From positions 496,001-560,000 of the forward strand of contig NZ_FNSR01000002.1 of assembly GCF_900104845.1 (NCBI RefSeq): DNA of 64,000 nucleotides. Reading direction: 5' to 3'. This document shows positions 7,021 to 55,693 of this stretch, in pieces (positions within the stretch are counted from its first letter, which is position 1; every line of letters starts with the position of its first letter). The notes under the pieces are model-generated. The model worked only from the letters and a program-made list of their open reading frames with translations, did not search any database and was not told the origin of the DNA. A program made the position numbers and the translations under genes. This stretch comes from Paraburkholderia caballeronis. Lineage in GTDB: Bacteria > Pseudomonadota > Gammaproteobacteria > Burkholderiales > Burkholderiaceae.

Positions 7021-7048
7021 CGGCGGCGTTGTCGAAACGACGCCGCCG
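7021..7048. terminator. Hairpin between convergent genes
   Basis: CGGCGGCGT at 7021-7029 pairs with ACGCCGCCG at 7039-7047. On the minus strand, which is downstream of the MFS gene, it is followed by a pyrimidine-rich CTTCCTTTCATC. It is a plausible shared terminator for the hydrolase and the convergent transporter gene. Confidence 0.45.
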
Positions 7049-7103
7049 CGCGACCTATCCCGGCAACGCGGCGATAAACCCGCCCCGTCGATACAGCCCG
7101 CCC

Positions 7104-8369
7104 TCACCTCGCCGACACCGCCCCAGCCAGGTCCCCCGCCTCCCCCGCCGCCGTATCGTCGATCGCGAAATGCAGCAGCGCCGCGACGAGCCCCGCCACC
7201 GCCGTCGCGCCCCAGATCAGCGAATACGAGCCGGTCACGTCGAACACATAACCGCCGAGCCATGCGCCGAGAAACGACCCGAGCTGATGGCTCAGGAAGC
7301 ACACGCCGAACAGCGTGCCGAGGTGGCGCATCCCGAACACCTTCGCGACGAGTCCGCTCGTCAGCGGCACCGTGCCGAGCCACGTAAGCCCCATCAGCGC
7401 GGCGAACACGACGACCGACAGCGTCGATTTCGGCAGCAGGAAAAACGCGCCGATCGTCACGCCGCGCACCACGTACAGCCAGCCGAGCACCCGCTGTTGC
7501 GGGTAGCGTCCGCCGAGCCAGCCGCACGCCCAGCTGCCCGCCATGTTGAACAGGCCGATCAATGCGAGCGCGGTCGCGCCGAGGCCCATCGGCATGTGGC
7601 ACAGGAACAGATAACCCGGCAGATGCGTCGCGATGAACGCGAGCTGGAAACCGCACGTGAAAAACCCGAGCGTCAGCAGCCGGTAGCCGCGATGCGCGGC
7701 CGCCTGCGCGAGCGCGTCGCGCAGCGAAGGCGCTGCACGGCCGCCGCCAGATGGCGCGTGCGACGCACCCACGTCCCGCCCACGCGAAAGCATCAACCCG
7801 AACGGCGCCGCAAGCAGCATCAAAAACGCGAGCGCGAACAGCGACATCGATACGCCGCCCCACTCGCGGACGATCTGCGCGAACGGCACCATCAGCACCT
7901 GGCCCGCCGAGCCGCCCGCGCTCGCGAGCCCCATCGCCATGCTGCGCCGGTCCGCGCCCGCGTCGCGGCCGACGGCGGTCAGCACGACGCCGAAGCTCGT
8001 GCAACTGATGCCGATGCCGACCAGCACGCCCATCCCGATCACCAGCGCGAAGCCGTTCGGCGCGACCGCCGCGAGCGCGAGCCCGGCCGCGAACGTGGCC
8101 GCGCCGAACGCGACGACCGGCGCCGGTCCGTGGCGATCCGCGGCCGCGCCCGCGAACGGCTGCGCGAATCCCCACACGAGGTTGTGAAGCGCGATCGCGA
8201 ACGCGATCAGCGTGACCGGCATGCCGCGATCGAACGAAAACGGCCCGATGAAAAGCCCGAACGTCTGCCGCGCGCCCATCGCGGCGCTCAGGATCACCGC
8301 GCCCGCGGCAATCGCGAGCAACGGGTGCGGCCGGACCGCGGCCGCATGGCGGCTGTCTGTTGTGGACAT
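7104..8369 (-). CDS. MFS transporter
   Basis: 421-residue integral inner-membrane protein of the major facilitator superfamily with about twelve hydrophobic segments. The cytoplasmic loop between TM2 and TM3 reads GAAADRHG, a form of the MFS motif A, and GxGISC / QLAFIATHLPGY segments resemble the oxalate/formate-antiporter-like subgroup. The ATG at 8369 is chosen because AAGGAGG ends eight bases upstream; a frame start at 8393 would put the ribosome-binding site inside the coding region. It lies just downstream of a LysR gene in the same orientation, so that regulator probably controls it. The substrate cannot be read from sequence. Confidence 0.87.
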   Translation of the reverse strand: MSTTDSRHAAAVRPHPLLAIAAGAVILSAAMGARQTFGLFIGPFSFDRGMPVTLIAFAIALHNLVWGFAQPFAGAAADRHGPAPVVAFGAATFAAGLALAAVAPNGFALVIGMGVLVGIGISCTSFGVVLTAVGRDAGADRRSMAMGLASAGGSAGQVLMVPFAQIVREWGGVSMSLFALAFLMLLAAPFGLMLSRGRDVGASHAPSGGGRAAPSLRDALAQAAAHRGYRLLTLGFFTCGFQLAFIATHLPGYLFLCHMPMGLGATALALIGLFNMAGSWACGWLGGRYPQQRVLGWLYVVRGVTIGAFFLLPKSTLSVVVFAALMGLTWLGTVPLTSGLVAKVFGMRHLGTLFGVCFLSHQLGSFLGAWLGGYVFDVTGSYSLIWGATAVAGLVAALLHFAIDDTAAGEAGDLAGAVSAR

Positions 8370-8488
8370 CGTGTGCATCCTCCTTGCGCGCATGTTCGCA
8401 AGGACGCGTCCGGCCCGACAAACGAAAAGATTTCGCGTACGGGTGAATGCGATTCAACCGTGCGCGGCGCGGGCGCTCATGCGGGCGC

Positions 8489-9412
8489 TCACGCGGACAG
8501 CGGCGCGGCGCGCGTGAGCGTGCGCGCCTCGTCGAGCAGCCACTGGCGGAACACGGCAAGGTCCGGCCGGTCCTCCGCGCCTTCCGCGCACACGAGCCAG
8601 TACGCGGTCTGCGCGGCGACGACCCGGTCGCTCGCCGCGACGAGCACGCGCGCCGCGAGATCGCGGTCCGCAAGAGGACGGCGGCCGATCGCAACGCCGA
8701 GTCCCATCGCGGCCGCCTCGAACGCAAGCTGGATCGTGTCGAAGCGCAGCCCGCCCGCAGTGACGATGCCGTCCGCCGCCGCCGGCCCCGCCGCATCGAG
8801 CCACGCCGGCCAGTCCTCGCTCGCGGAGTCGACATGGATCAGCGTCGCGCGGCGCAGGTCGATCCGGCCGTCGTCAGCGCGCAGCGTATCGAGATACGCG
8901 GGGCTGCCGACCGGCACCAGGGACTCGCCGAACAGCCGCGTCCAGGCCGCGCCGGCCACCGGGCCGCGGCTCAGGCGGATCGCGAAGTCGAAGCCGTCGA
9001 CCGGAAACGCGACCTGTCGCTGCGAGGTGTCCACGCTGACACCGAGGTTCGGCCAGCGCGCGCGGAACGCGGACAGCGCCGGCAGCAGCCAGCGCGACGC
9101 GAGCGTCGGCGCGCAGCTGACCGAGATCGTGCGGTGCGCGCGCCGGTCCGGCAGCCGCTGCGTGCCGATCGCGATCAGCGCGAACGCCTCCGCGACGTAC
9201 GGCAGATACAGTTCGCCCTCCGGCGTCAACGACAGGCCGCGCGGCTCGCGCACGAACAGATCGACGCCGAGCGACTGTTCGAGCGCGACGATCCCGTGGC
9301 TGACCGCGCTCGGCGTCACGTTCAGTTCGGCGGCGGCGAGCTTGAAGCTGCGCAGCCGTGCGGCGGCCTCGAAGAAGCGCAGCGCGGACAGCGGCGGAAG
9401 GCGAAGCGGCAT
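8489..9412 (-). CDS. LysR-family transcriptional regulator (GcvA-like)
   Basis: 307-aa regulator. The N-terminal winged helix-turn-helix is visible (LSALRFFEAAARLRSFKLAAAEL, then NVTPSAVSHGIVALEQSLGV), in which PPLxALRxFEAAAR is typical of the GcvA subgroup. A substrate-binding domain follows from about residue 90 (RTISVSCAPTLASRWLLPAL; FDFAIRLSRG). The start at 9412 gives the usual MPLRLPPL opening; the frame is open further upstream but without homology. It is transcribed in the direction of the MFS gene 119 bp downstream. The preceding 348 bp toward the sensor kinase gene would hold its promoter. Confidence 0.9.
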   Translation of the reverse strand: MPLRLPPLSALRFFEAAARLRSFKLAAAELNVTPSAVSHGIVALEQSLGVDLFVREPRGLSLTPEGELYLPYVAEAFALIAIGTQRLPDRRAHRTISVSCAPTLASRWLLPALSAFRARWPNLGVSVDTSQRQVAFPVDGFDFAIRLSRGPVAGAAWTRLFGESLVPVGSPAYLDTLRADDGRIDLRRATLIHVDSASEDWPAWLDAAGPAAADGIVTAGGLRFDTIQLAFEAAAMGLGVAIGRRPLADRDLAARVLVAASDRVVAAQTAYWLVCAEGAEDRPDLAVFRQWLLDEARTLTRAAPLSA

Positions 9413-9760
9413 GTGGGGCTTCTCTGTCGGGTGGCGTGGGGTGCGTCGAACGGGATATGAAGCGGTACATGCGGAACCTCTCGCGCGCCGCCTCGCATGC
9501 ATACCGATGCGCACAGCATAGGCGAACCGCCGCCGCGCGCTCGGGCATGAACAGGCCCACGCTGCGAACGCCGCCCGCCCGGCCGCTTCGCGTTCCGGCG
9601 CGGCAATGATGATATCGTCTGCCATGCTGTCGGTGCCGGACCGCGCCGGACGCGACGCGCGGACGCGGGGGTCCGCGACGGCGGCGCACGCGGCGCGCAT
9701 CGTAGCGGTCCGCAGCGGGCCGCCGCGGACCGGCATCAACGGCTGAACGATTCGGACCAC
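9413..9760. promoter_or_regulatory. Divergent intergenic region with GGTCCGC/GCGGACC array ahead of the sensor kinase
   Basis: No gene is seen in this 348-bp stretch. Close to the kinase start it holds two hairpins built from the same word: GCGGAC (9659-9664) with GTCCGC (9671-9676), and CGGTCCGC (9706-9713) with GCGGACCG (9725-9732). The four half-sites alternate in orientation and the last ends 28 bp before the ATG at 9761. They could be protein-binding sites or a structured mRNA leader that controls kinase translation. Confidence 0.4.
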
Positions 9761-11104
9761 ATGAGCGCATCGAAAACATCTCAATGGATCATCCGCGCGT
9801 ACGCATCGATGCGCCCGCGCATCGCGCACGCGTTCGAGCCCGCGCTGCGCAACCTGCAATACGTGAAACGGCGGATGCGCCCGCTCGCCGCGATCGCAAT
9901 CGTCGGTTTTCCGCTGTACTACTACGTTTGGCGCGATCTATTCCCACAGCCCTACGAGAATCTGACACTGCGCCTGATCGGCGCGGCGCTGTTCGTGCCG
10001 ATCCTGTTCTTCGACCGCTGGCCCGCGTTCGCGAAAAAATGGCTGCCATGGTACTGGTACCTGTCAAGCCTGTATGCGCTGCCGTTCTTCTTCACGTTCA
10101 TGCTGATGAAGAACAACGGCTCCGAGGTGTGGGTCGAAAGCGCGCTGATCGCGGTGTTCGTGATGGTGCTGCTGCTCGACTGGCTGATGCTCGTGCTTCA
10201 GTTCGTGACCGGCATCGGCCTCGCGGTGCTCGTCTATTTCCTGAGCGCCGACCCGGCCACGCTCGGCGCGAACTATCTGACGCATCTGGCGATCTTCTCG
10301 TTTGCGATCGCGATCGGCGCGATCGCGAATTACGATCAGGAACGCATACGGGTCGAACAGGAACGCGCGATGCTCGCGACCGCGGGCAGCGTCGCGCACG
10401 AACTGCGCACGCCGCTCGTCGCGATCCGCGTCGGCGCGGCCGGGCTCACGCGTTATCTGCCGCTGCTGCTCGAAAGCTACGACCTCGCGCAGCGCAACCG
10501 TTTGCCGGTGCCGAAAATACGCATCGCGCACCTGCATTCGATGCAGGGCGTCGTGTCGCGCATCGAGCAGGAGGCGCTGCATTCGAACGCGATCATCGAC
10601 ATGCTGCTCGCGACCGCGCGCTTCAGCGGCGGCAACGCGCAGCACAACACGCCCTGCTCGATCGCGCATTGCGTGGAGAGCGCGCTCGACCGCTATCCGT
10701 TTCGCGAAGGCGAGCGCCGCCGCGTATCGTGTGCGCTCGCAGCGGATTTCATGTTCGTCGGCTCGGAAATGCTGATGGTGCACGTACTGTTCAATCTGCT
10801 GAAAAATGCGTTTCGGCATATGGGCAGCATCGAGCATGCGGCGATCACGATCCACACGGAAACCGGCACGCGCGCCAACCGGCTGATTTTTCGCGACACG
10901 GGAACCGGCATTTCGCCCGAAGTATTGCCGCACATCTTTACGCGCTTTTATACTTCATCCACCACCACCGATGACGTGTCGCTCGGAGCAGGAATCGGGC
11001 TGGCCTTCTGCCACGATGTCATGCATGCGATGGGGGGGACCATCACCTGCTCTTCGGCGAAGGGCCAATACACCGAGTTCGTTCTGACATTCCCGCCGCC
11101 ATGA
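9761..11104 (+). CDS. lqsS: Alpha-hydroxyketone sensor histidine kinase (LqsS/JqsS-like)
   Basis: 447-aa membrane histidine kinase. About six hydrophobic segments span residues 41-190 (for example RLIGAALFVPILFF, ALIAVFVMVLLLDWLMLVL, LAIFSFAIAIGAIA). The DHp domain follows with the H box SVAHELRTPL, phospho-acceptor His213; then the N box FNLLKNAFRHM, the D box DTGTGISPE, an F box FTRFYTSS and the G box GAGIGLAFC. A short six-TM input domain without a periplasmic sensor domain is the arrangement of LqsS/CqsS-type receptors for alpha-hydroxyketones. Its stop overlaps the ATG of the response regulator (ATGA), and a convergent autoinducer synthase follows. Assignment to this system rests on that context together with the architecture. 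Confidence 0.85.
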   Translation: MSASKTSQWIIRAYASMRPRIAHAFEPALRNLQYVKRRMRPLAAIAIVGFPLYYYVWRDLFPQPYENLTLRLIGAALFVPILFFDRWPAFAKKWLPWYWYLSSLYALPFFFTFMLMKNNGSEVWVESALIAVFVMVLLLDWLMLVLQFVTGIGLAVLVYFLSADPATLGANYLTHLAIFSFAIAIGAIANYDQERIRVEQERAMLATAGSVAHELRTPLVAIRVGAAGLTRYLPLLLESYDLAQRNRLPVPKIRIAHLHSMQGVVSRIEQEALHSNAIIDMLLATARFSGGNAQHNTPCSIAHCVESALDRYPFREGERRRVSCALAADFMFVGSEMLMVHVLFNLLKNAFRHMGSIEHAAITIHTETGTRANRLIFRDTGTGISPEVLPHIFTRFYTSSTTTDDVSLGAGIGLAFCHDVMHAMGGTITCSSAKGQYTEFVLTFPPP

Positions 11105-12129
11105 CGATAGACATCAAGCCGTTTTCGTTTCCGACCACGGTCGCGTTCGTCGATGACAGCGCAGCATTCCTGTCGAATCTGAGCCTGCAGCTGGACCCGC
11201 AGCTCGCGTTCCGGCTGTTCAGCTCGCCGGCGAAGGCGCTGCAGTTCCTGAACGAACCGTCGGCGGCGTCCGACCCGGGCGCGGAGCCGCTGCTCGCGCC
11301 GTATCGCGACCGCACCGAGGAAAACGATGCGCATCAGGTGATCGCGATGAGCGTCGATGCGATCCGCAGCCAGGTGCACAACGCGGAACGCTTCGAATCG
11401 ACGTCGGTCGTCGTCGTCGATTACGACATGCCGGAACTGAACGGCGTCGAGTTCTGCCGCCGCATCGAGAACCCGTCGATCCGTAAGATCATCCTGACCG
11501 GCAAGGCGGACGAGCACGTCGCAGTGAAGAGCTTCAACGAAGGGCTGATCGACCGTTTCATCCGCAAGCACGACACCGACGCAGTGGATGCGCTGAACCG
11601 CGCGGTCGAGGACATGCAGAATGCGTATTTCGACAAGGCGTGCCGCACGATCCTCGACGGACTCGCGGTGTCCGAATACGGATTCCTGAAGGATCGTGCG
11701 CTCGCCGCGCACGTGAACGGTATTTTCGATTCATTGGGCATCGTCGAGCACTATCTGTCGTATCAGCCGAACGGGCTGCTGATGTTCGACAGCGCCGGCA
11801 CGCCGTACCTGATGATCATCCACACCGACGAATCGCTGCGCGGCGTGCGCGAGATCGCCGTCGAGCAGCGCGCGCCCGCCGACTTTCTCGCGGAACTCGA
11901 CAGCCACCGCAGTCTCCCGTATTTCTGGCGCACCGAGGGTTATTACCCGGCGCAATGCGTGCAGTGGCAGCCGTATATGCATCCGGCATCGGTGTTCGAC
12001 GGCGAGCGCCGTTACGTCTATTCGATCGTGCGCAAGCCGGCCGGCTTCGCGCTGGACCACATCGTCCCTTACGACCGTTATCTGCAACGGCTCGACGAGG
12101 AAATCCAGGCGGCGTGGCGTTCCCGCTGA
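11101..12129 (+). CDS. lqsR: Response regulator of the alpha-hydroxyketone system (LqsR/JqsR-like)
   Basis: 342-aa regulator starting inside the stop of the kinase gene (4-bp ATGA overlap), so the two are translationally coupled. The receiver domain has acidic residues FVDDS at 17-20 and an acceptor motif VVVVDYDMPELNGVEF with Asp107, and a conserved KIILTGKAD segment. The insert between the first strand and the acceptor strand is longer than in CheY. There is no helix-turn-helix after the receiver; the C-terminal half (from about residue 160) is a novel-looking domain including RSLPYFWRTEGYYPAQCVQW. LqsR of Legionella likewise has a receiver domain with a C-terminal part that lacks a standard DNA-binding motif, so the output is unknown and may be protein-protein or catalytic. 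Confidence 0.85.
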   Translation: MTIDIKPFSFPTTVAFVDDSAAFLSNLSLQLDPQLAFRLFSSPAKALQFLNEPSAASDPGAEPLLAPYRDRTEENDAHQVIAMSVDAIRSQVHNAERFESTSVVVVDYDMPELNGVEFCRRIENPSIRKIILTGKADEHVAVKSFNEGLIDRFIRKHDTDAVDALNRAVEDMQNAYFDKACRTILDGLAVSEYGFLKDRALAAHVNGIFDSLGIVEHYLSYQPNGLLMFDSAGTPYLMIIHTDESLRGVREIAVEQRAPADFLAELDSHRSLPYFWRTEGYYPAQCVQWQPYMHPASVFDGERRYVYSIVRKPAGFALDHIVPYDRYLQRLDEEIQAAWRSR

Positions 12130-45878: not shown

Positions 45879-46394
45879 TCAGTTGCGTTGATTCCTCACC
45901 GCCGCCAGAATCCCGCGCAGCAGATCGGCCGGCGACGGCGGACACCCCGGTATCGACACATCGACCGGCAGCAGATCGGACACCCCGCCGCACACCGCAT
46001 AACCGTCGCGAAAGATCCCGCCGGTGCAGGCGCACTCGCCGGCCGCGACGACGAGCTTCGGCGCGGGCGTCGCGTCGTAGGCCTGCCTCACCGCTTCGCG
46101 CATGTTCAGCGCGAGCGGCCCGGTAATCAGCAGCAGGTCCGCATGGCGCGGACTCGCGACGAAGCGGATGCCCAGCCCCTCGATGTTGTAGTACGGGTTG
46201 TTCAGCGCATGGATTTCCAGTTCGCAGCCGTTGCACGACCCGGCGTCGATCTGCCGGATCGTGAGCGCGCGGCCCAGCACGTCGAGGATCTCCTGCTGGA
46301 TGCGCTCGCCTTCCGCGCGCCATTCGTCGGCGGGCGCGGGCGCCGGCTCGTCGGGCGTGCCGGTCGTCGCGATCTGCTTCAGAAGTTGCCACAT
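45879..46394 (-). CDS. hyfI: Hydrogenase-4/complex I-like small subunit (HyfI/NuoB-like)
   Basis: 171-aa iron-sulfur subunit homologous to HycG/HyfI and NuoB. Four cysteines for the proximal 4Fe-4S cluster are present: CNGC (Cys54, Cys57) in DAGSCNGCELEIHAL, Cys121 in AAGECACTGGIF, and Cys151 in IPGCPPSPADLL. The cluster that hands electrons to the large subunit should therefore form. The start overlaps the large-subunit stop by one base (TAATG). It is the last gene of the six-gene series. The N-terminal ~30 residues are Pro/Ala-rich and not conserved-looking. It acts at the cytoplasmic face of the membrane complex. Confidence 0.9.
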   Translation of the reverse strand: MWQLLKQIATTGTPDEPAPAPADEWRAEGERIQQEILDVLGRALTIRQIDAGSCNGCELEIHALNNPYYNIEGLGIRFVASPRHADLLLITGPLALNMREAVRQAYDATPAPKLVVAAGECACTGGIFRDGYAVCGGVSDLLPVDVSIPGCPPSPADLLRGILAAVRNQRN

Positions 46395-47944
46395 TACAGG
46401 TCGTGTCCCGCGTAGTTCAGATTGAACGACTTGTTGATCAGCGGAAAGTCCGGAACGATGTTGCCGATGATCGCGTGTTCGAGCGCGGGCCAGTTCTGCC
46501 ACGACGGATCGTGCGCATGGCAGCGCGCGATCGTGTTGCCCTCGCCCGTCTCCAGCGCGACCAGCACGTCGCCGCGCCAGCCTTCGACCCAGCCGATGCC
46601 GCGCGCCGCCGGACCGTCCGCCTCGACGCGCGCGACGATGCCGCCGCCGGGCAAGCCGGCCGCGAGCGCGCGGATCAGGCGCAACGATTCGTAGACTTCC
46701 CCGAAACGCACCGCGACGCGCGCGGCGACGTCGCCGCGCGTTTCCAGCACGCGCCGCACCGCGAGTTCGTCGTACGGCGCAAACGGACAATCGACGCGCA
46801 CGTCGATCGCGCGGCCGCTCGCGCGCGCGGCGAGCCCGCATACGCTGAAGTGCTCGACGACCGGCGCGCGTAATACGCCCGCATTCGCGAAGCGGTCCTG
46901 CAAGCCCGACTGGTCGTCGTACACGCGCTGGATCGCGCGCACGCCCGCTTCGATCGCGTCGCACTGTTGCGCGATCGCGGCGAGCGCGTCCGCGTCGGCG
47001 TCCACCGCGACGCCGCCCGGCACGATCACATCCTTCGCGTAGCGATGGCCGAACACGCGATCGTTGAGCCGCAACCAGTCCTCCTTCAGCCGCGAGAACT
47101 GCGCGAGGCCGAATGCGAAACCCGCGTCGTTGCCGAGCGCGCCCAGGTCGCCGAGATGATTCGCGACGCGCTCGCGCTCCAGCAGCAGCGCGCGCAGCCA
47201 CGACGCGCGGCGCGGCACGTCGATGCGCCGCGCGCTCTCGACCGCCATGCAATATGCCCACGCGAACGCGACGGTGGTGTCGCCGGCGATGCGGCCCGCG
47301 AGCCGATGGCCTTCCAGCAGCGGCGTGCGCTCGAACAGCCGCTCGATGCCGCGATGCAGATAACCGAGCCTCTCTTCGAGCCGCAGCACCTTTTCGCCGA
47401 CCACCGAGAAGCGGAAATGCCCCGGCTCGATGATGCCCGCATGGATCGGTCCGACCGCGATCTCGTGCACGCCGTCGCCGGCCACCTGCACGAACGGATA
47501 ATCGGCCTCGTTCGATTCGAACCGCTCGGTGCCGGACACGCGCTTTTGCAGCGGATGATAATCGGCCGGCCAGTTGCCGTGATTCAGCCACGGCCGCGTA
47601 TCGTCCGCGCCGCGCGCGTGCAGGCCGAGCAGATCGTGAACCGCGCGCTGCATCCGCGTCGCGCATGCAAAGGTCGCGGACAGGTCCGGATAACCGCGTT
47701 CTGCGTCGGCCGCGACGCGGACCCACAGCAGCCCGTCGTCGAACGCATAGGCGGCCGATACACCGAATCCGCCGACCGCGCCCGCCGCCGCCTCGTCGCC
47801 CCACAGCGATACGAGCCGCGCGCCCGCTTCGCGCGCGGCCGCCGCGACGCGCAGCCACGCATCGGCATCGACCGCCGCGAAACGCGCCGCCGCGCCCGCG
47901 AGCGGCACGACACCGGCCAGTTCGAGTGCGTCGCTTCGCATCAT
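46394..47944 (-). CDS. hyfG: Large subunit of an energy-converting hydrogenase-related complex (HyfG/NuoCD-like, no NiFe ligands)
   Basis: 516-aa protein fusing a NuoC-like N-terminal part (residues ~1-135) to a NuoD/HycE-like large subunit (HEIAVGPIHAGIIEPGHFRFS near 160-180; RLGYLHRGIERLF). In true group 4 hydrogenases, RxCGxC and a C-terminal DPCxxC bind the NiFe centre. Here the first site reads GRIAGDTTVAFAWAYC (Ala220 and Thr223 in place of cysteine), and the chain ends NKSFNLNYAGHDL with no CxxC. The protein therefore cannot bind NiFe in the normal way. This is the hallmark of Ehr complexes, which lie between complex I and group 4 hydrogenases. Overlaps: ATGA with the upstream gene, TAATG with the small-subunit gene. 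Confidence 0.9.
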   Translation of the reverse strand: MMRSDALELAGVVPLAGAAARFAAVDADAWLRVAAAAREAGARLVSLWGDEAAAGAVGGFGVSAAYAFDDGLLWVRVAADAERGYPDLSATFACATRMQRAVHDLLGLHARGADDTRPWLNHGNWPADYHPLQKRVSGTERFESNEADYPFVQVAGDGVHEIAVGPIHAGIIEPGHFRFSVVGEKVLRLEERLGYLHRGIERLFERTPLLEGHRLAGRIAGDTTVAFAWAYCMAVESARRIDVPRRASWLRALLLERERVANHLGDLGALGNDAGFAFGLAQFSRLKEDWLRLNDRVFGHRYAKDVIVPGGVAVDADADALAAIAQQCDAIEAGVRAIQRVYDDQSGLQDRFANAGVLRAPVVEHFSVCGLAARASGRAIDVRVDCPFAPYDELAVRRVLETRGDVAARVAVRFGEVYESLRLIRALAAGLPGGGIVARVEADGPAARGIGWVEGWRGDVLVALETGEGNTIARCHAHDPSWQNWPALEHAIIGNIVPDFPLINKSFNLNYAGHDL

Positions 47945-49404
47945 CCCCCCGCGATCATCGCCGCCGCCTGCCGGTACCACGTCGCAAGCCACGGCGGAAT
48001 ATAGAGGCCGAGCATCAGCCCGAGCCCGAGATGGACGAACACCGGCAGCAGCGCCGGCGAATGTTCGAGCTTCGTTGCGGTCGTGTCGCCGAACACCATG
48101 TGCTGCACGCGCGTGAAGATCGCCGCGAACGCAACCGCGAGCGCGAGCAGCAGCAGCGGCGTCGCCCACGGCAGGCGCGCCATCGCGGTGGTCAGGATCA
48201 GGAACTCGCTCGCGAACACGCCGAACGGCGGTATCCCGACGATCGCGAGCGCGCCGAGCATCATTCCCCAGCCGACCGTCGGGCTCACGCGCAGCAGCCC
48301 GCGAATGTCGTCGATGGCCTGCGTATGGGTCTTCTGCACCGCATGGCCGACCGCGAAGAAGATCGCGGACTTCACCAGCGAATGCACGGTCATGTGCAGC
48401 AGCCCCGCGAACGTCGCGATCGGGCCGCCGAGGCCGAACGCGAACGTCATCAGCCCCATGTGCTCGATCGACGAATACGAGAACAACCGCTTCACGTCCT
48501 TCTGCCGGAACAGCGAAAAGGTCGCGACGAGCACCGAGATCAGCCCGAAGCCGACCAGCAGCCGGCCCGGCAGGCCGTTCTGCAACGCGCCGTCCGCGAG
48601 CACCTTGCAGCGCAGCACCGCGTACAGCGCGACGTTCAGCAGCAGCCCGGACAGCACCGCCGAGATCGGCGTCGGGCCTTCCGCGTGCGCGTCCGGCAGC
48701 CAGTTGTGCATCGGCACGAGGCCGACCTTCGTGCCGTAGCCGATCAGCAGGAACACGAACGCAAGCGACACGATGGTCGGATCGAGGCCGCCGCGCACTT
48801 CGTTCAGGCTGCTCCACAGCAGTGCGTCGCCGCCCGCCAGATGCCGGCTCGCGGCGAGATACAGCAGGATCGTGCCGAACAGCGCCTGCGCGATGCCGAC
48901 GCCGCACAGGATGAAATACTTCCACGCTGCTTCGAGGCTCGCGGCGGTGCGATAGACGCTGACCAGCAGCACGGTCGCGAGCGTCGCCGCCTCCATCGCG
49001 ACCCACAGGATGCCCATGTTGTTCGTCAGCAGCGCGAGCAGCATCGCGAACACGAACAGCTGATACATGCTGTGATAAAGGCGCATCCGCGCCGGGGTCA
49101 TCCGGCCGCGGTCGCGCTCGATGCGCATGTACGGCTGCGAGAACATCGATGTGGTCCAGCCGACGAACGCGGTGAGCGCGACGAGGAACACGTTCAGCGG
49201 ATCGACGAAGAACAGCTTGTCGAACATGAACGCCGGCCCGTGCGCGACGGTGCGCTGCGCGAGCAGCAGCGTCGCCGCGAACGTGACGAAGCTGAACGCG
49301 ACGTTCACGCGCGACGCGCCGCGATGCTGGCCGACGAGCGCGAGCACGCCGCCCGCGACGAGCGGGCAACCGCAAACGATCAGCAGCAGCGCGGCGTCAG
49401 TCAT
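47941..49404 (-). CDS. hyfF: Antiporter-like membrane subunit (HyfF/NuoN-like)
   Basis: 487-aa polytopic protein of the Mrp/complex I antiporter-like family with about fourteen hydrophobic segments. The proton-channel residues are present: Glu138 in LWVAMEAATLATVLL (TM5 glutamate) and Lys226 in IGYGTKVGLVPMHNWLPDAH (TM7 lysine), followed by AEGPTPISAVLSG. It should translocate H+ or Na+ across the inner membrane, coupled to electron transfer in the peripheral subunits. It overlaps the HyfE-like gene by 8 bp and the large-subunit gene by 4 bp (ATGA). Confidence 0.9.
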   Translation of the reverse strand: MTDAALLLIVCGCPLVAGGVLALVGQHRGASRVNVAFSFVTFAATLLLAQRTVAHGPAFMFDKLFFVDPLNVFLVALTAFVGWTTSMFSQPYMRIERDRGRMTPARMRLYHSMYQLFVFAMLLALLTNNMGILWVAMEAATLATVLLVSVYRTAASLEAAWKYFILCGVGIAQALFGTILLYLAASRHLAGGDALLWSSLNEVRGGLDPTIVSLAFVFLLIGYGTKVGLVPMHNWLPDAHAEGPTPISAVLSGLLLNVALYAVLRCKVLADGALQNGLPGRLLVGFGLISVLVATFSLFRQKDVKRLFSYSSIEHMGLMTFAFGLGGPIATFAGLLHMTVHSLVKSAIFFAVGHAVQKTHTQAIDDIRGLLRVSPTVGWGMMLGALAIVGIPPFGVFASEFLILTTAMARLPWATPLLLLALAVAFAAIFTRVQHMVFGDTTATKLEHSPALLPVFVHLGLGLMLGLYIPPWLATWYRQAAAMIAGG

Positions 49405-50056
49405 CTTTGAGTTTTTCGAGGTGGTGGATGTCGAGGCTGTCGAACTGCTCGCGGATCTGGAACATGAACACGCCGAGAATCAGGATGCCGACCAGCACGT
49501 CGAGGCCGATGCCGAGTTCGACGATCATCGGCATCCCGTTGGTCGCGGCGGCCGCCGCGAAGAACAGCCCGTTTTCCATCGACAGGAAGCCGATCACCTG
49601 CGGAATCGCCTTCGCGCGCGTAATCATCATCATGAACGACAGCAGCACGCACGCGAGCGCGATGCCGAGCGTGCCGCGCGCGACCGACGACGCGAGCTGG
49701 CTCACCGGCGACGCGACGTTGAACGCGACGATCACGAGCACGATGCCGACCAGCAGCGTCGCGGGGATGTTCAGCAGCGATTCGACGTCGGTGCGCACGT
49801 TCAGCCGCAGCACCACCTTGTACAGAATCCACGGGATCAGCGCGACCTTCAGCACCAGCGTGAGGAACGCGGACACGTACAGGTGCGTGTCGCTCGTCAC
49901 GTAACCGAGCACGAGGTTCGCGGACACGAGCGCGAGCCCTTGCAGCGTGTACAGATGCAGCAGCGACAGCACGCGGCGCTGGCTCAGCATCGCGAACGAC
50001 AGCAGCAGCAGGATCGCCGCGAGGAAGTTGATGATCTGCGTCGCGAAGCCGTGCAT
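49397..50056 (-). CDS. hyfE: Membrane subunit (HyfE/NuoK-like)
   Basis: 219-aa membrane protein with about six to seven hydrophobic segments (INFLAAILLLLSFAML; LYVSAFLTLVLKVALIPWIL; GIALACVLLSFMMMITRAK; IGLDVLVGILILGVFMFQI). HyfE is longer than NuoK but its C-terminal half is NuoK-like; the segment ARGTLGIALACVLLSFMMM followed by GFLSMENGLFF resembles NuoK, where Glu residues in the membrane take part in proton transfer (the Glu of SMENG here). It adjoins the HyfC-like gene with no gap (50056/50057) and overlaps the next gene by 8 bp. Confidence 0.88.
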   Translation of the reverse strand: MHGFATQIINFLAAILLLLSFAMLSQRRVLSLLHLYTLQGLALVSANLVLGYVTSDTHLYVSAFLTLVLKVALIPWILYKVVLRLNVRTDVESLLNIPATLLVGIVLVIVAFNVASPVSQLASSVARGTLGIALACVLLSFMMMITRAKAIPQVIGFLSMENGLFFAAAAATNGMPMIVELGIGLDVLVGILILGVFMFQIREQFDSLDIHHLEKLKDD

Positions 50057-51007
50057 TCACGCCCCCAGCAGGAAGTGGACGAGCATGCCGATCACCGCGA
50101 GCAGGAACGCGGTGGCAAGAAACTCGGGGACCCGGAACACGCGCATCTTCGCGTTCGCGGTTTCGACGAACGCGAGCGCCGCGCCGCCGATCGCGAGCTT
50201 CACGAACAGCGCCGGAATCGCGAACAGCAGCGCGAGCGGATTGCCCGCCTCCGCGATCCCCCACGGCACGAACAGCGCGAGGCCGATGCACGAATACGCG
50301 AGCAGCTTCAGGCTCGCGGCCCACTCCATCAGCGCGAGATGGCGGCCCGAGTATTCGAGGATCAGCGCTTCGTGGATCATCGTCAGTTCGAGGTGCGTGG
50401 TCGGGTTGTCGACCGGCAGCCGCGCGTTTTCCGCGAGCGACACCATCGTGAACGCGATGCCCGCGAACGCGAGGCTCGGATAGATCGCGAATTCGCTATG
50501 ACTGATCGTCTCGACGATGCTGGTCAGCAGCGTCGACTGCGTGATGAGCGACGCGGAGAACAGCACCATCAGCAGCGCCGGCTCCGCGAGGAACCCGACC
50601 AGCATTTCGCGCCGCGCGCCGAGCGTGCCGAACGCGGTGCCGATGTCCATCGCGGCAAGCGAGATCGTCACGCGCGCGAGCGCGAACAGGCCGACCAGCG
50701 CGATCGCGTCGGCGGCCGGCGACAGCGGCAGGTCGGTGGACAACGTCGGCACGATCGCGCAGGCGAGCGTCATCGCGCCCCACACGACGTATGGCGCCGC
50801 GCGGAAGATCGGGCTCGCGTGCTCCGCGACGACCGACTCCTTGTTGAACAGCTTGTGCAGCATCCGGTACGGCTGCCAGAGACTCGGCGCGCGGCGCTTC
50901 TGCAAGCGCGCGCGGCAGATGTTGATCCAGCCGGTCAACAGCGGCGCGGCCGCGAGCGCGACGAGAATTTCCAGCCCTTGCGAGAGCAGCCCGGACCACG
51001 TAATCAT
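50057..51007 (-). CDS. hyfC: Membrane subunit (HyfC/NuoH-like)
   Basis: 316-aa polytopic protein homologous to NuoH/HycD/HyfC, which joins the peripheral arm to the antiporter-like subunits. The characteristic opening WINICRARLQKRRAPSLWQPYR, the FALARVTISLAAMDIGTAFG segment and the quinone-cavity motif SLAENARLPVDNPTTHLELT with EYSGRHLALMEW are clear. The start overlaps the HyfB-like stop (ATGA). Acidic residues in the AEN...HLELT loop match those of complex I that take part in coupling. A natural role is to bind a membrane quinone or to carry the coupling signal in this complex. Confidence 0.9.
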   Translation of the reverse strand: MITWSGLLSQGLEILVALAAAPLLTGWINICRARLQKRRAPSLWQPYRMLHKLFNKESVVAEHASPIFRAAPYVVWGAMTLACAIVPTLSTDLPLSPAADAIALVGLFALARVTISLAAMDIGTAFGTLGARREMLVGFLAEPALLMVLFSASLITQSTLLTSIVETISHSEFAIYPSLAFAGIAFTMVSLAENARLPVDNPTTHLELTMIHEALILEYSGRHLALMEWAASLKLLAYSCIGLALFVPWGIAEAGNPLALLFAIPALFVKLAIGGAALAFVETANAKMRVFRVPEFLATAFLLAVIGMLVHFLLGA

Positions 51008-53013
51008 CGTCTCACCAGCAGCAGAAGCACGATCAGCACGACAAAGCTGTACATCAGATAGACCGCGATGCGGCCGGTCTGCAACAGACCCGCGAGCGCG
51101 GCGACACGCTTCACCGCGCGCCCGACCGGTTCGTACAGCAGCGTCCACACGCGGTCGGTGACGGTCACGCGATAGACCGGATGCGCGTCGAACGGCGACG
51201 GCAGTTCGCGCTCGATGCGGAACAGCGGCGTGAACACTTCGCGGATCGGCTGGCCGAAACCCTCGGCCGTGTCCTGCATCCGCGCGGTCACGAACGGATG
51301 GCCGCAGGCCCACGGCGCCGCGCGGCGCAGCCGGCCGTGATAGAAGCGCCGCACGACGACCCACGCGAGCCCGCAGCAGCCGACGAAAAACGCGAGGAAG
51401 ATCGCGGGCATGTAGCTCGCGCGGTCGGCGCTCGTCGGCGCGAGCAGCAGCCAGCCGTGCTGCGCGACCGTCGCGCCGATGCCCGCGCCGGCGAGCAGGT
51501 GCGTCACGCGGTCGAGCACCGCGACGAACTGCACCGGCAGCAGCCCGAGCAGCACGCAGACGACGACGAGCCAGACGAAGCCGACGCGCTCCCACGGGCT
51601 CGCGTCGTGCGCGTCGGCGAGCTTCGCTTCGCGCGGCTGGCCGAGGAACACGATCCCGTAGAACTTGACCATCGTGTAGCCGCCGAGCGCGGCGACCAGC
51701 GCGATCAGCGCGGCGATGATCGGCACGACCATGTTCAGGAACGTGTCCGGCAAATGCGGCGTGAACAGGAAGCTCTGCAACAGCAGCCACTCCGACACGA
51801 AGCCGCCGAGCGGCGGCAGCCCCGCGCTCGCGAACGCGCCGACCAGCGCGGTCCACGCGGTCCACTTCATCGTGCGGATCAGGCCGCCGAGATGGCCGAG
51901 GTTGCGCTCGCCGGTCGCATGCAGCACCGAGCCGGTGCCGAGGAACAGCAGCGTCTTGAACGCCGCGTGACTCGCGATCTGGTACAGCAGCGCGGTCAGC
52001 GACAGCGCGGCGAGCGTGCTCATCCCATAGGCGCGGAACAGGATCGCGAGCCCGAGGCTCACGAACATCAGCCCGATGTTGTCGATCGACGAATAGGCGA
52101 GCAGCCGCTTCATGTCAGTCTGGATCGCGCTGAACACGACGCCGAGCAGCGCGGAACAGAGGCCGAGCACGAGCAGCACGACGCCCCACCACGCAATCTG
52201 TAAATGCAGCAGATCGAACACCGTGCGCAATACGCCGTACAGGCCGACCTTCAGCACGAAGCCGCTCATCAGCGCGGACACCGGCGACGGCGCGGCCGGG
52301 TGCGCCTCGGGCAGCCATACGTGCAGCGGGAAGATGCCCGCCTTCGCGCCGAAGCCGAACAGCGCGAGCAGGAACGCAGCGGATGCGGACAGCACGTCGA
52401 GATGCTGGACGCGCATATTGGCGAACGTGTAGTCGCCGGTGTTCGCCTGCAACAGGCCGAAACACAGCAGCAGCGCGAGCGCGCCGACGTGCGAGATCAG
52501 GAAATACAGCGCGGCCGCGCGGCGGATCTCCGCGATCCGGTGGTTCGTCATCACGAGGAAACTCGCGGACAGCGTGACCACTTCCCATGCGACCATGAAG
52601 CTGTAGGCGTCGTTCGCGAGCAGCACGAGCGCGAGACTCGCGACGCACACGTGATACTCGAAGCACAACAGGCCCGGCGGCGTACCCTCGCCACGGCGGA
52701 AGTAGCCGGCCGAGAACGCGCCGACGCCGGCGCTCACCATCCCGAGCACGGCGAGGAAGAAGCCGGACAGGCTGTCGAGCCGGAAATGCATCGGCAGGTT
52801 CGGCAGGCCGAGCGGCAGCACGACTTCCTGTTCGCCCGCGAACACGCCGGCGAGGCCGAGCGCGCACAGCAGCAAGCCGAGCGCGGCGCCGGCCGGAAAC
52901 AGCGCATGCGCGACCGCACGCGTGCGGCGCAGCGCGGCGAGACCAAGCACGCCGAGCGCGAGCCAGCCGGCAACCACCAGCAGCACGCCGTCGATGACCG
53001 GGAAATGTTCCAT
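51004..53013 (-). CDS. hyfB: Antiporter-like membrane subunit (HyfB/NuoL-like)
   Basis: 669-aa polytopic protein, first gene of the six-gene series. Conserved TM5 glutamate Glu144 (MVAWEVVTLSASFLV) and TM7 lysine Lys224 (FGAKAGIFPLHVWLPEAH) with PAAPSPVSALMSG are present, as is a HyfB-type C-terminal extension with WACGHPFVTARMQDTAEGFGQ. It should form a proton or sodium channel in the inner membrane. No strong ribosome-binding site is seen; GGGGA stands about ten bases upstream. The region before it contains repeated ATGGTAAC-type sites and a 43-codon leader-like ORF. No ferredoxin-type (HyfA/HyfH), formate dehydrogenase or maturation genes accompany the series. Confidence 0.9.
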   Translation of the reverse strand: MEHFPVIDGVLLVVAGWLALGVLGLAALRRTRAVAHALFPAGAALGLLLCALGLAGVFAGEQEVVLPLGLPNLPMHFRLDSLSGFFLAVLGMVSAGVGAFSAGYFRRGEGTPPGLLCFEYHVCVASLALVLLANDAYSFMVAWEVVTLSASFLVMTNHRIAEIRRAAALYFLISHVGALALLLCFGLLQANTGDYTFANMRVQHLDVLSASAAFLLALFGFGAKAGIFPLHVWLPEAHPAAPSPVSALMSGFVLKVGLYGVLRTVFDLLHLQIAWWGVVLLVLGLCSALLGVVFSAIQTDMKRLLAYSSIDNIGLMFVSLGLAILFRAYGMSTLAALSLTALLYQIASHAAFKTLLFLGTGSVLHATGERNLGHLGGLIRTMKWTAWTALVGAFASAGLPPLGGFVSEWLLLQSFLFTPHLPDTFLNMVVPIIAALIALVAALGGYTMVKFYGIVFLGQPREAKLADAHDASPWERVGFVWLVVVCVLLGLLPVQFVAVLDRVTHLLAGAGIGATVAQHGWLLLAPTSADRASYMPAIFLAFFVGCCGLAWVVVRRFYHGRLRRAAPWACGHPFVTARMQDTAEGFGQPIREVFTPLFRIERELPSPFDAHPVYRVTVTDRVWTLLYEPVGRAVKRVAALAGLLQTGRIAVYLMYSFVVLIVLLLLVRR

Positions 53014-53447: not shown

Positions 53448-53963
53448 ATGGTAACGAACCACGATACTGCTGACCGAACCCGGTCCACGGTCCCGAAGCC
53501 TGAAGCGAGCCCCCGAGTGATCGACATCGACGTACCGCTGCTGTCCCACGACCATACGCGCCCGCGGCTGCGGGACGTCGCGGGTCCGCACGGGCTGGCG
53601 GTCGTCTGCGTCGGCAAGACGGGCGAACGCGGGTTCCAGATGCTGTATCTGTTCGCCGGCGTCTGCGCGCGGCTGGAGGAATGCGGCGTGAACGTCGTGT
53701 TCGTCTATCAGAAGGCGTCCGCGCGCCGCGTGCAGGACGCGACTTCCGTGCTCGCCGCGCGCTTCAAAAGCCGGCCGAGCCTGCTGCTCGACGACGGCGG
53801 CCGGTTCTTCGCGAAGCCGCCCGGCCCGCGGTCGCTGCGGATGTTCCATTTCGACGGCCAGATGCAGCCGCTCGATTCGGCCGACATCGCGCTCGACAGC
53901 CCCGCATGGGAAGCCACGCTGCGCGCCCGTCTCGAAGACATCGCGGAACGCGCGATGCACTGA
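53448..53963 (+). CDS. Thioredoxin-fold-like protein of unknown function
   Basis: 171-aa soluble protein. The central part (residues ~45-95) reads LAVVCVGKTGERGFQMLYLF then AGVCARLEECGVNVVFVYQK, a strand-helix-strand pattern like a thioredoxin/peroxiredoxin fold, but the usual CxxC position is occupied by GERG, so normal redox activity is doubtful. Later VLAARFKSRPSLLLDDGGRFF also suits that fold. No signal peptide. The ATG at 53448 is used; an in-frame ATG at 53415 (IMVLPYPYPLMVTNHD) lies inside the operator-like site and is less likely. The gene diverges from the hyf-like operon and shares its control region, which suggests linked regulation. Family call is tentative. Confidence 0.65.
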   Translation: MVTNHDTADRTRSTVPKPEASPRVIDIDVPLLSHDHTRPRLRDVAGPHGLAVVCVGKTGERGFQMLYLFAGVCARLEECGVNVVFVYQKASARRVQDATSVLAARFKSRPSLLLDDGGRFFAKPPGPRSLRMFHFDGQMQPLDSADIALDSPAWEATLRARLEDIAERAMH

Positions 53964-54033
53964 CCGGATGACCGCCGGCCGCCACGAAGCCATTCCCCGC
54001 GCGTCAACCGAGGTGCGACGCTCCCCACCGATC

Positions 54034-54807
54034 ATGCCGAAGAAGAAAAAACTGGATACGCCGCAGATCGTCGAGAACGATCAGGTGGTGTCGCTCTATT
54101 TCGATGCGCGCGGCGTGCAGAGCACGATGCTGCGGCACGACCCGGACGCGCTCGCGCTCGGCTACACGCGGACGATGATGGGTTTCCTGCTGTTCCGCCC
54201 CAGCCCGCGCCGCATTTCGCTGATCGGGCTCGGCGGCGGATCGCTCGCGAAGTATTGCTACCGGCACCTGCCGAACACGACGATCGCGGCGGTCGAGATC
54301 AATCCGGAAGTGATCGCGCTGCGCGACCAGTTCCACTTGCCGCGCGACGACGCGCGCTTCAGCGTGATCTGCGCGGACGGCGCCGACTACGTCGCGCGCC
54401 GGGACCAGCGGCCCGACGTGATGCTGATCGACGGTTTCGACGCGGACGGCGTGCCGGCCAACCTCGCGAGCCGCGCGTTCTATGAAGCGTGCCGTCGCCG
54501 GCTTAGCGACGACGGCATGCTGGTCGCGAACCTCGTGACCGACGAGCCGGACTTCCATCGTTATCTGCGCTCGCTCGCGCGGGTGTTCGGGCGATCGATC
54601 GCGGTCGCGCCGTCGGAAGGCAGCGACTACAACGTGACCGTGTTCGCATGGAAAGGCGGCGAACAGCTGCCGCCGTTCGGCGACCTGCTGGAACGCGCGC
54701 GGCTGCTGCAATACGTGCATCCGATCAACCTGTACGCGGCCGCGACGCGCATCGAGCGCGGCAGACAGTTCGACTGGGATTTCTATCGGGAAGCGGAGCG
54801 CTGCTGA
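54034..54807 (+). CDS. Spermidine synthase-like methyltransferase-fold protein
   Basis: 257-aa protein of the spermidine-synthase-like Rossmann family. The nucleotide-binding segment ISLIGLGGGSLAKYCYRHLP, the acidic strand end AAVEINPEVIALRDQFHLP, CADGADYVARRDQRPDVMLID and the GFDADGVPANLASRAFYEAC region are standard. Many bacterial relatives without a full polyamine site are of unknown function. Start: ATG at 54034 (PKKKKLDTPQIVEND) is preferred because it lies just before the conserved part; ATG at 53968, five bases after the previous stop, is possible and would add 22 residues. It probably forms an operon with the Trx-fold-like gene. Confidence 0.78.
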   Translation: MPKKKKLDTPQIVENDQVVSLYFDARGVQSTMLRHDPDALALGYTRTMMGFLLFRPSPRRISLIGLGGGSLAKYCYRHLPNTTIAAVEINPEVIALRDQFHLPRDDARFSVICADGADYVARRDQRPDVMLIDGFDADGVPANLASRAFYEACRRRLSDDGMLVANLVTDEPDFHRYLRSLARVFGRSIAVAPSEGSDYNVTVFAWKGGEQLPPFGDLLERARLLQYVHPINLYAAATRIERGRQFDWDFYREAERC

Positions 54808-54916: not shown

Positions 54917-55114
54917 ATGGAAACCAAAAGCGCCCGCCTCACGATTCTGATCGATCCTGTTAAAAAAGCAGCGTTCGAGGAACTGTGCGCCGCCCAGGAC
55001 CTGACGCCATCGCAGGTCGTGCGGCAACTGATTCGCGACTACCTCGAACATCACGGCGTCACGTACAAGACCAAAAGCACCGTCGGCACGCGCGCGCGTC
55101 GCAAGGCGCCCTGA
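54917..55114 (+). CDS. Ribbon-helix-helix DNA-binding protein
   Basis: 65-aa protein with the ribbon-helix-helix (CopG/Arc-like) plan: strand ARLTILIDP, helix VKKAAFEELCAAQ, loop, helix TPSQVVRQLIRDYLEHHG, then a basic tail (TRARRKAP). Such proteins bind DNA as dimers and often regulate themselves or act as antitoxins. No toxin-like gene follows; the next gene is on the other strand, so a lone regulator is more likely. A consensus -10 element lies 33 bp upstream. No strong Shine-Dalgarno sequence is visible. Confidence 0.8.
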   Translation: METKSARLTILIDPVKKAAFEELCAAQDLTPSQVVRQLIRDYLEHHGVTYKTKSTVGTRARRKAP

Positions 55115-55327: not shown

Positions 55328-55693
55328 TTAGTGACCGGACATGAGAATGCTCGTGATCACGCCGGTCGCAACCGCCGCCAGCACGTAGTCGCCGTTCACG
55401 CCGACCCAGTGATAACCGCGCGGCGGCGCCGACAGACCGTGCGCATGCCAGTCGTCGACCACGTAGTTGCGGTCGCGATATTCGGCCGGCAGCCGCTCGC
55501 CGCGATGCCAGTCGTTGTGCGGGATCGGACCGCCCGGCCGGCCGAACGCGGCCTCGTGCACCGGCGTCGGCCGGTGTTGCGGACCGCCATGCGAGTCGCG
55601 ACGGTCGGGACCGTGCGGCTGCGCGAACGCGACTGCCGCGGACGTGCCGAGCAGCGAAGCGATGACGAACGACGCGATGGCTTTTGATTTCAT
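55328..55693 (-). CDS. RcnB-family periplasmic protein
   Basis: 121-aa exported protein. Signal peptide KSKAIASFVIASLLGTSAAVAFA, then a His/Gly/Pro/Arg-rich segment (HGPDRRDSHGGPQHRPTPVH) and the RcnB signature WHRGERLPAEYRDRNYVVDDWHAHGLSAPPRGYHWV (quoted in two parts: WHRGERLPAEYRDRNYVVD and LSAPPRGYHWVGVNGDYVLA), ending in a hydrophobic ATGVITSILM strand. RcnB of E. coli is a periplasmic protein that modulates nickel/cobalt export; most relatives are unstudied. The start has AGGCGCTCACAG upstream, which is weak. No metal exporter gene is adjacent. Confidence 0.85.
   Translation of the reverse strand: MKSKAIASFVIASLLGTSAAVAFAQPHGPDRRDSHGGPQHRPTPVHEAAFGRPGGPIPHNDWHRGERLPAEYRDRNYVVDDWHAHGLSAPPRGYHWVGVNGDYVLAAVATGVITSILMSGH

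What the first reader, a model, noticed from the sequence alone, without database searches (positions are those of the whole stretch)
45879..53013. Complex I/hydrogenase-4-like complex without NiFe ligands (Ehr type)
Six overlapping genes encode a HyfB-, HyfC-, HyfE-, HyfF-, HyfG- and HyfI-like complex. The membrane subunits keep their channel Glu/Lys residues (Glu144/Lys224; Glu138/Lys226) and the small subunit keeps four cluster cysteines. The large subunit, however, has Ala220/Thr223 where RxCGxC should be and ends without DPCxxC. No ferredoxin-like subunit or Hyp maturation gene is present. It therefore cannot be a hydrogenase; the electron donor, the acceptor and the pumped ion are all unknown. 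Energy-converting hydrogenase-related (Ehr) complexes are described from genomes but, to my knowledge, lack an established reaction.
Basis: partly seen in the sequence, partly recalled or inferred. Interest (0 to 1): 0.8.

Follow-up and report, generated by a model that had tools for sequence, protein, structure and literature searches.

The report
Hydrogenase-like membrane complex without nickel site
Six adjacent bacterial genes encode a relative of a hydrogen-making enzyme and of respiratory complex I that has lost its nickel-iron site but keeps a conserved replacement pocket and its proton-handling residues; it belongs to a known group of complexes whose reaction is still unknown.

Summary
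Observation confirmed. Six minus-strand genes (45879-53013) encode HyfB, C, E, F, G and I homologues. The large subunit is closest to E. coli HycE but has RIAGDT for RxCGxC and NLNYAG for DPCxxC. No other NiFe large subunit and no HypD were found in the whole genome; no Fer4_7 ferredoxin domain lies in the window.

It is a member of the described but functionally unassigned Ehr complexes. The former metal site is rebuilt, not decayed: in 98 type-1 large subunits Asp222, Asp273, Asn504, Lys505, Tyr511, Gly513 and Asp515 are invariant. The proton path known from HycE (Glu173, His263, Arg374, Glu416, Arg457) is kept, but the canopy Asp is Asn508 in 97 of 98. Both quinone-headgroup residues of complex I are absent.

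Best model: a soluble low-potential donor reduces the single 4Fe-4S cluster of HyfI, which reduces a quinone-like acceptor in the pocket, coupled to proton pumping by HyfB/HyfF. Donor, acceptor and ion are inferred. Novelty is modest; the residue map makes an open question testable. One relative (M. branderi) has lost even the small-subunit cluster cysteines.

The parts
51004..53013 (-). HyfB-like antiporter-type membrane subunit, 669 aa
   Evidence: NCBIfam NF005086 at 898.7 bits, cut-off 667; Glu144, Lys224, Lys353 and Glu408 each 82 of 82
50057..51007 (-). HyfC/NuoH-like membrane anchor, 316 aa
   Evidence: PF00146 at 113 bits; acidic residues Asp100, Glu142, Glu193, Glu207, Glu218 each 86 of 86
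49397..50056 (-). HyfE-like membrane subunit, 219 aa
   Evidence: NF008556 at 103 bits, below its cut-off of 136; Glu161 and Glu180 each 86 of 87
47941..49404 (-). HyfF-like antiporter-type membrane subunit, 487 aa
   Evidence: NF005045 at 904.7 bits, cut-off 543; Glu138 86 of 88, Lys226 87 of 88
46394..47944 (-). HyfG-like large subunit, NuoC-NuoD fusion, 516 aa, without NiFe ligands (start could also be the next Met, 47941)
   Evidence: PF00329 and PF00346 over cut-off; best PDB match FHL HycE; RIAGDT at 218-223 and NLNYAG at 508-513
45879..46394 (-). HyfI-like small subunit, 171 aa, one expected 4Fe-4S cluster (Cys54, Cys57, Cys121, Cys151)
   Evidence: PF01058 at 107 bits; best PDB match FHL subunit 7; C-x2-CE and GCPPxP motifs both present in 86 of 88 relatives

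Best explanation
It is an Ehr complex: a hydrogenase-4/FHL-type membrane complex whose NiFe site has been replaced by a metal-free substrate pocket. Shown here by sequence: the two antiporter-type subunits keep their channel Glu/Lys, HyfC and HyfE keep acidic residues, HyfI keeps four cluster cysteines, the large subunit keeps the residues that carry substrate protons in HycE, and the four NiFe cysteines are gone. Inferred: a soluble low-potential carrier (ferredoxin or flavodoxin) docks directly on HyfI, because HyfA- and HyfH-type subunits are absent from the operon; the single cluster passes electrons to a quinone or similar two-electron acceptor in the rebuilt pocket; Glu173 supplies protons; the reaction drives proton pumping through HyfB and HyfF. 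It is an accessory to the ordinary complex I encoded elsewhere.
For: Closest homologues are FHL HycE and HycG. Proton-path residues Glu173, His263, Glu416 and Arg457 are 98 of 98, Asn262 97 and Arg374 96, mapped onto the HycE residues named in PMC9474812 (passages). Pocket residues Asp222, Asp273, Asn504, Lys505, Tyr511, Gly513, Asp515 are 98 of 98 and stay invariant when Alphaproteobacteria and Rhodococcus are added. Cluster motifs kept in 86 of 88. Channel and axis residues of B, C, E and F kept. A second Ehr cluster in Variovorax carries a ferredoxin domain fused to its HyfI, pointing to electron entry at that place (L088). A separate NuoD and further antiporter-type subunits lie on C1.
Against: Both complex I quinone-headgroup residues are absent (His38 to Ile172, Tyr87 to Gly221). 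The canopy Asp is Asn508, and PMC9474812 (passage) states that changing the canopy residues to non-protonatable ones impairs quinone reduction in complex I. No donor gene accompanies the operon: the neighbours are varied. One relative, M. branderi, has lost all four cluster cysteines. Among close relatives the large subunit is the least conserved of the six. The pocket segments of the model have pLDDT under 50, so no cavity could be modelled. Authors working on Geobacter suggested instead that its Ehr takes part in making hydrogen from formate (PMC7894505, passages).
Confidence: 0.4

Rival explanations
1. Non-redox: the complex is a cation/proton antiporter or pH-homeostasis device, and the peripheral arm is a ligand-gated or structural remnant.
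For: Membrane subunits are more conserved than the large subunit among close relatives (mean identity C 0.822, F 0.782, E 0.777, B 0.710 against G 0.638), the reverse of one real hydrogenase-4 pair (G 70% against 51-53%). M. branderi has lost all four small-subunit cluster cysteines. A role in pH homeostasis has been suggested for the ehrABCDLS genes of Methylacidiphilum (PMC6688271, passages).
Against: Cluster motifs are kept in 86 of 88 relatives and proton-path residues are nearly invariant, which an antiporter would not need. At long range the large subunit is mid-table, not least conserved.
Confidence: 0.2
2. Reverse operation: the proton-motive force drives electrons from a quinol-like donor in the pocket up to a low-potential carrier docked on HyfI, supplying reduced ferredoxin to an aerobe.
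For: Same anatomy as the best model; carriers include Rhizobium and Azospirillum, groups known (recalled) for nitrogen fixation, which needs reduced ferredoxin.
Against: No nitrogenase or other low-potential enzyme stands beside the operon in the loci looked at; a function that general was not tested.
Confidence: 0.15
3. MBS-like chemistry: the pocket or cluster reduces a sulfane sulfur or disulfide substrate.
For: Loss of both quinone-headgroup residues is shared with MBS (PMC7684303, passages; mapping).
Against: MBS keeps two of the four NiFe cysteines; here all four positions are non-Cys in the window and in most of 98 relatives. The cysteine-pair region aligns without a gap to MbhJ, so the shortened loop reported for MBS is not indicated. 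No ferredoxin subunit in the operon. The large subunit scores higher with FHL (206.5 bits) than with 6u8y_L (81.3 bits; identity of 6u8y as MBS is recalled).
Confidence: 0.1
4. A decayed hydrogenase, or a hydrogenase with an unusual metal site.
For: All four metal ligands are lost; a few relatives keep single Cys at three of the four positions (4, 1 and 5 of 98; for example L108 and L109).
Against: Intact frames and an invariant replacement motif from Burkholderiales to Rhizobium, Azospirillum and Rhodococcus. HypD is no commoner in carriers: 16 of 34 against 92 of 240, Fisher p 0.35. No C-terminal extension.
Confidence: 0.05

Closest known systems
[quoted passage not shown]
   Same: Group 4 hydrogenase/complex I-like subunits, large subunit without NiFe motifs, function open (passages of PMC7894505, PMC6688271, PMC4378227, PMC10284858, PMC10432482)
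   Different: None of those sequences was fetched or placed in the tree here, so the sub-branch is not settled; one paper puts its Nitrospira Ehr near group 4f, another relates its archaeal ones to group 4a
Hydrogenase-4 / formate hydrogenlyase-2 (HyfA-J) of E. coli and Azospirillum lipoferum
   Same: HyfB, C, E, F, G, I; identity to E. coli 32, 31, 24, 37, 30 and 39%
   Different: No HyfA, HyfD, HyfH, HyfJ or HycI in the operon; NiFe ligands and C-terminal extension lost
Respiratory complex I (NuoB, C, D, H, L/M/N)
   Same: NuoC-NuoD fusion, antiporter-type subunits, Asp273 shared with NuoD
   Different: His38 and Tyr87 equivalents absent; C-x2-C instead of adjacent cluster cysteines; no NADH module in the operon
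MBS of Pyrococcus furiosus
   Same: Loss of quinone-headgroup residues; NiFe-less large subunit (passages)
   Different: MBS keeps two NiFe cysteines, has three 4Fe-4S clusters and Mrp-type modules; not so here
Rv0082-Rv0087 (hycDPQE) of Mycobacterium tuberculosis
   Same: Six-gene hydrogenase-4-like operon raised in hypoxia or dormancy studies (passages of PMC2799521 and PMC6901956); its gene order as recalled matches Rhodococcus L091
   Different: Its sequences were not fetched; the two papers disagree on DosR-regulon membership, and both call it a possible hydrogenase

Membership tests
Ehr complex | Group 4 hydrogenase-like membrane and peripheral subunits in one operon | tested here: met
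Ehr complex | Large subunit without RxCGxC and DPCxxC | tested here: met
Ehr complex | Groups with published Ehr sequences in a tree | not tested
   No published Ehr reference was fetched; the tree holds only my own type-1 and type-2 sets, four group 4a hydrogenases and two NuoD
Ehr complex | Measured redox activity and ion translocation | not testable with these tools
   Needs experiment; not established for Ehr in the passages seen
Group 4a [NiFe] hydrogenase | Four Cys ligands of the NiFe site | tested here: not met
Group 4a [NiFe] hydrogenase | C-terminal extension removed by a maturation protease | tested here: not met
   The protein ends at Leu516 where E. coli HyfG continues
Group 4a [NiFe] hydrogenase | Hyp maturation genes in the genome | tested here: not met
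   HypD absent; the other Hyp proteins were not searched
Complex I | Quinone-headgroup His38 and Tyr87 of the NuoD-type subunit | tested here: not met
   Ile172 in 98 of 98; Gly221
Complex I | Adjacent cysteine pair at cluster N2 | tested here: not met
   C-x2-C spacing
MBS | Two of the four NiFe cysteines kept | tested here: not met
   None in the window; feature from PMC7684303
MBS | Shortened loop that leaves one cluster iron without Cys | tested here: inconclusive
   The region aligns without a gap to MbhJ, but MbsJ itself was not aligned

The most novel reading that the evidence does not exclude
The former NiFe pocket has become the site of a further chemistry in the complex I superfamily, beside proton, sulfane sulfur and quinone reduction. 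The signature R[IV][AS]GD[ST]T ... NKSxNxxYxGxDL and the Asp-to-Asn canopy change mark a dedicated substrate that is neither H+ nor a complex I-type quinone, and one 4Fe-4S cluster suffices to couple it to proton pumping.
Probability: 0.3. Interest if true: 0.75.

Novelty: new member of a known kind. Interest (0 to 1): 0.42.

Why it matters
Such complexes are common: a match was found in 34 of 274 sampled genomes of the window's class and, leaving out one weak-band hit, in 26 of 200 of its family. They are annotated as hydrogenase or formate hydrogenlyase subunits in records seen here, yet the passages seen call their function unknown. A residue map that separates what is kept (cluster, proton path, antiporter channels) from what is replaced (NiFe ligands, canopy Asp, quinone residues) turns the question 'what is Ehr for' into a few point mutants in a tractable soil bacterium, and bears on how hydrogenase and complex I pockets were converted into each other.

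Tried and rejected
FNR/ANR box upstream of hyfB: the best match to TTGAT-N4-ATCAA (consensus recalled) in up to 400 bp upstream of 81 operons was 6, 7 or 8 of 10 in 35, 38 and 8 loci. Mononucleotide shuffles gave 51%, 39% and 6% (3% at 5, 0.3% at 9 or 10), so no clear enrichment; starts came from my own simple gene caller. The hypoxia idea therefore rests only on papers about mycobacteria and is not used as evidence.

lxa (low-oxygen) locus of B. cenocepacia: none of the 12 papers listed (of 17 found) holds the word hydrogenase (listing only); dropped.

Neighbourhood clustering on raw reading frames was swamped by overlapping frames in GC-rich DNA and discarded. Codon-scored gene calls gave DUF1275/YoaK in 35 of 90 loci (window included), spermidine-synthase-like in 34, a protein without Pfam match in 30, a ribbon-helix-helix protein in 22 and YjdM in 19 (families named); none is universal and none looks like an electron donor. 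Reading frames around 14 further regions were also heterogeneous.

The protein beside the operon (53517-53963) was considered as a thioredoxin-like donor and rejected: no Pfam hit and no CxxC in its translation.

Shifted NiFe ligands, a second large subunit and a nearby ferredoxin subunit were looked for and not found.

AlphaFold model: useful for the fold only; segments 147-197 and 493-516, which hold much of the pocket, have pLDDT under 50.
Full report
WHAT IS THERE. Six genes run on the minus strand from 53013 down to 45879. They overlap or abut (4, 0, 8, 4 and 1 bp) and encode HyfB (669 aa), HyfC (316), HyfE (219), HyfF (487), HyfG (516) and HyfI (171). Pfam and NCBIfam assign them as hydrogenase-4 B and F (above cut-off), NuoH-like, HyfE-like (below its cut-off), NuoC-NuoD fusion and NuoB-like. 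A simple hydropathy count gives 12, 7, 5, 11, 0 and 0 membrane-like segments for B, C, E, F, G and I. The window lies on contig C2 of a 7.1 Mb, three-contig genome.

LIGANDS. The large subunit's best PDB match is FHL HycE (7z0s_E, 206.5 bits), then MbhL (101.9), complex I chains (90.0 and below) and 6u8y_L (81.3; that this entry is MBS is recalled). The AlphaFold model (mean pLDDT 81) finds the same FHL chain first by fold (TM 0.83 by query length). In alignment with E. coli HyfG, RVCGIC becomes RIAGDT and DPCYSC becomes NLNYAG, and the protein stops at Leu516 where HyfG continues. The only other PF00346 match in the genome is an ordinary NuoD. The only PF00374 match, below cut-off, is this gene. 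HypD is absent. No Fer4_7 domain lies in the window although 20 matches lie elsewhere in the genome.

HOW COMMON. The same six genes occur on plasmids of Rhizobium, Methylovirgula and Azospirillum (in the Azospirillum record HyfE is not annotated but was found by sequence), and in the order I-B-C-E-F-G in Rhodococcus. In the window's class, as the tool defines it, 34 of 274 sampled genomes match at E 1e-90 or better; the 40 matches fall into two bands, 35 at 458 bits or more and five at 308-329. In the family 27 of 200 match, one only in the weak band, and 8 of the 22 same-genus genomes do, so the operon is accessory and patchy. Carriers have HypD no more often than non-carriers (16 of 34 against 92 of 240, Fisher p 0.35). 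That count assumes that both calls drew the same 274 genomes, as their identical handles indicate, and it ignores phylogeny.

A REBUILT POCKET. Across 98 type-1 large subunits (window included) these tested positions are invariant: Ile172, Glu173, Asp222, His263, Asp273, Arg301, Glu416, Arg457, Asn504, Lys505, Tyr511, Gly513 and Asp515. Asn508 is 97 of 98, Asn262 97, Asn272 96, Arg374 96, Trp229 94. The four former Cys positions are Ala/Ser (with four Cys and one Thr), Ser/Thr (one Cys), Ser/Asn (five Cys, two Ala) and Gly. In the 74-sequence set 14 of the last 17 columns are at 95% or more, against 38% for the whole protein. Most of the 98 are Burkholderiales, so they are not independent; the ten-row alignment that adds Alphaproteobacteria and Rhodococcus keeps the same pocket residues invariant. 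One partial sequence outside the 98, the second Ehr cluster of Variovorax cut by the end of L088, ends in NKSFDLSYCGNDL: it has the NKSF signature but an Asp at the canopy position, so the Asp-to-Asn change is not universal among NKSF-type proteins.

MAPPING TO KNOWN MECHANISM. PMC9474812 (passages only) names the HycE residues that carry substrate protons: Asp192/Glu193, Ser283, His284, Arg395, Glu437, Arg478 and canopy Asp529. With the alignment (its chain numbering runs 12 higher, which I attribute to the inserted tag) these map to Ile172/Glu173, Asn262, His263, Arg374, Glu416, Arg457 and Asn508. So the path is kept except that the second loop acid is Ile and the canopy Asp, called strictly conserved in that paper, is Asn. 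The same paper says that changing canopy residues impairs quinone reduction in complex I, which speaks against a plain quinone site here. The complex I headgroup residues His38 and Tyr87 map to Ile172 and Gly221; their absence is shared with MBS (PMC7684303, passages), but MBS keeps two NiFe cysteines and the window's protein none. Asp273 is shared with NuoD, not with the four group 4a hydrogenases. HyfB and HyfF channel residues, HyfC acids and HyfE Glu161/Glu180 are kept.

TREE. A maximum-likelihood tree of 36 large subunits puts 25 type-1 sequences (window included) in one group (99/95), five type-2 sequences in another (99/98), four group 4a hydrogenases together (99/96) and two NuoD apart; type 1 plus type 2 are together at 97/97. 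Holding type 1 with the hydrogenases is not rejected (AU p 0.071); holding type 2 with them is (p 0.016). Several branches are long, two of them meet, and no published Ehr, Mbx or Ech reference was included, so the deep order is not settled. Type-2 operons run C-E-F-G-I-B in L092, L094 and L107 (not checked for L093 and L106), and the small subunit of L092 carries an N-terminal ferredoxin-like domain. L107's HyfI frame, 269 aa, is long enough to hold one; this was not checked.

CONSTRAINT. Mean pairwise identity in 74 operons is B 0.710, C 0.822, E 0.777, F 0.782, G 0.638 (NuoC-like part 0.496, NuoD-like part 0.691) and I 0.704. In one real hydrogenase-4 pair (E. coli, A. lipoferum) the large subunit is the most conserved: G 70 and I 64 against 51-53 for membrane subunits. 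Against this, at long range (window and Rhizobium) G at 47% is mid-table (B 41, C 49, E 38, F 53, I 55). The shift of constraint to the membrane arm is therefore seen only among close relatives.

MECHANISM. A metal-free, flavin-free pocket beside one 4Fe-4S cluster suits a two-electron acceptor that tolerates one-electron steps; in a soil proteobacterium the simplest candidate is a quinone, with a donor protein docking where HyfH would sit. The Variovorax cluster with a ferredoxin domain fused to HyfI (L088:535-1281) supports electron entry there. I put 0.4 on this, 0.2 on a non-redox antiporter, 0.15 on reverse operation, 0.1 on sulfur or disulfide reduction and 0.05 on decay or an unusual metal; the rest is unknown. 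In the passages I saw, no step has been shown by experiment for this branch. All Ehr subunits detected in Geobacter were more abundant on formate than in hydrogen-containing conditions, which its authors read as a link to hydrogen production from formate (PMC7894505, passages); a formate-dehydrogenase partnership was proposed for other phyla (PMC6349859, passages). Here seven molybdopterin-family (PF00384) matches exist in the genome but none lies in the window.

WHAT IS NEW. The complex type is known and its function open in the papers seen. The searches behind this were made, in a library that lacks most subscription journals; Coppi 2005 and Marreiros 2013 were seen only as reference entries. 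What I did not see in the passages read is the pocket signature, the canopy Asp-to-Asn change against an otherwise kept proton path, and the cluster-less M. branderi relative. I therefore file it as a new member of a known kind.

Noticed in passing
L092:11309-12100 (Mycobacterium branderi plasmid): The HyfI-like protein has lost all four small-subunit cluster cysteines (SNGSDEWE, GTDA, PGAPASP) and carries an N-terminal ferredoxin-like part with one CxxCxxC and one CP left, so its redox path must differ or be gone.
   Followed up: partly
L088:1-1284 and 4696-11880 (Variovorax sp. PBL-E5 plasmid 3): Two Ehr clusters lie a few kb apart; the first, cut by the locus end, has HyfI fused to a 4Fe-4S ferredoxin domain and a large subunit ending NKSFDLSYCGNDL.
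   Followed up: partly
window 54917-55114: A ribbon-helix-helix protein (PF19839), not annotated as part of the operon; relatives lie near the operon in 22 of 90 loci, a candidate regulator.
   Followed up: no
window 53968-54807: A spermidine-synthase-like protein near the operon in 34 of 90 loci; reason for the association unknown.
   Followed up: no
window 55331-55693: An RcnB-family protein (nickel/cobalt transporter regulator in Pfam's words) lies about 2 kb from the nickel-less complex; probably coincidence.
   Followed up: no
L085:12488-14155 (E. coli K-12 hyfG): E. coli K-12 HyfG has a 16-residue gap covering the position of HycE Arg395, which three other group 4a large subunits keep.
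   Followed up: no
G000:C2:1790766-1793967: A molybdopterin-family oxidoreductase frame with one in-frame TGA next to a ferredoxin-type frame; possibly a selenocysteine formate dehydrogenase.
   Followed up: no
L090:1-4054 (Methylovirgula sp. HY1 plasmid): An F-type ATP synthase operon lies directly beside the Ehr operon, a possible shared ion circuit.
   Followed up: no
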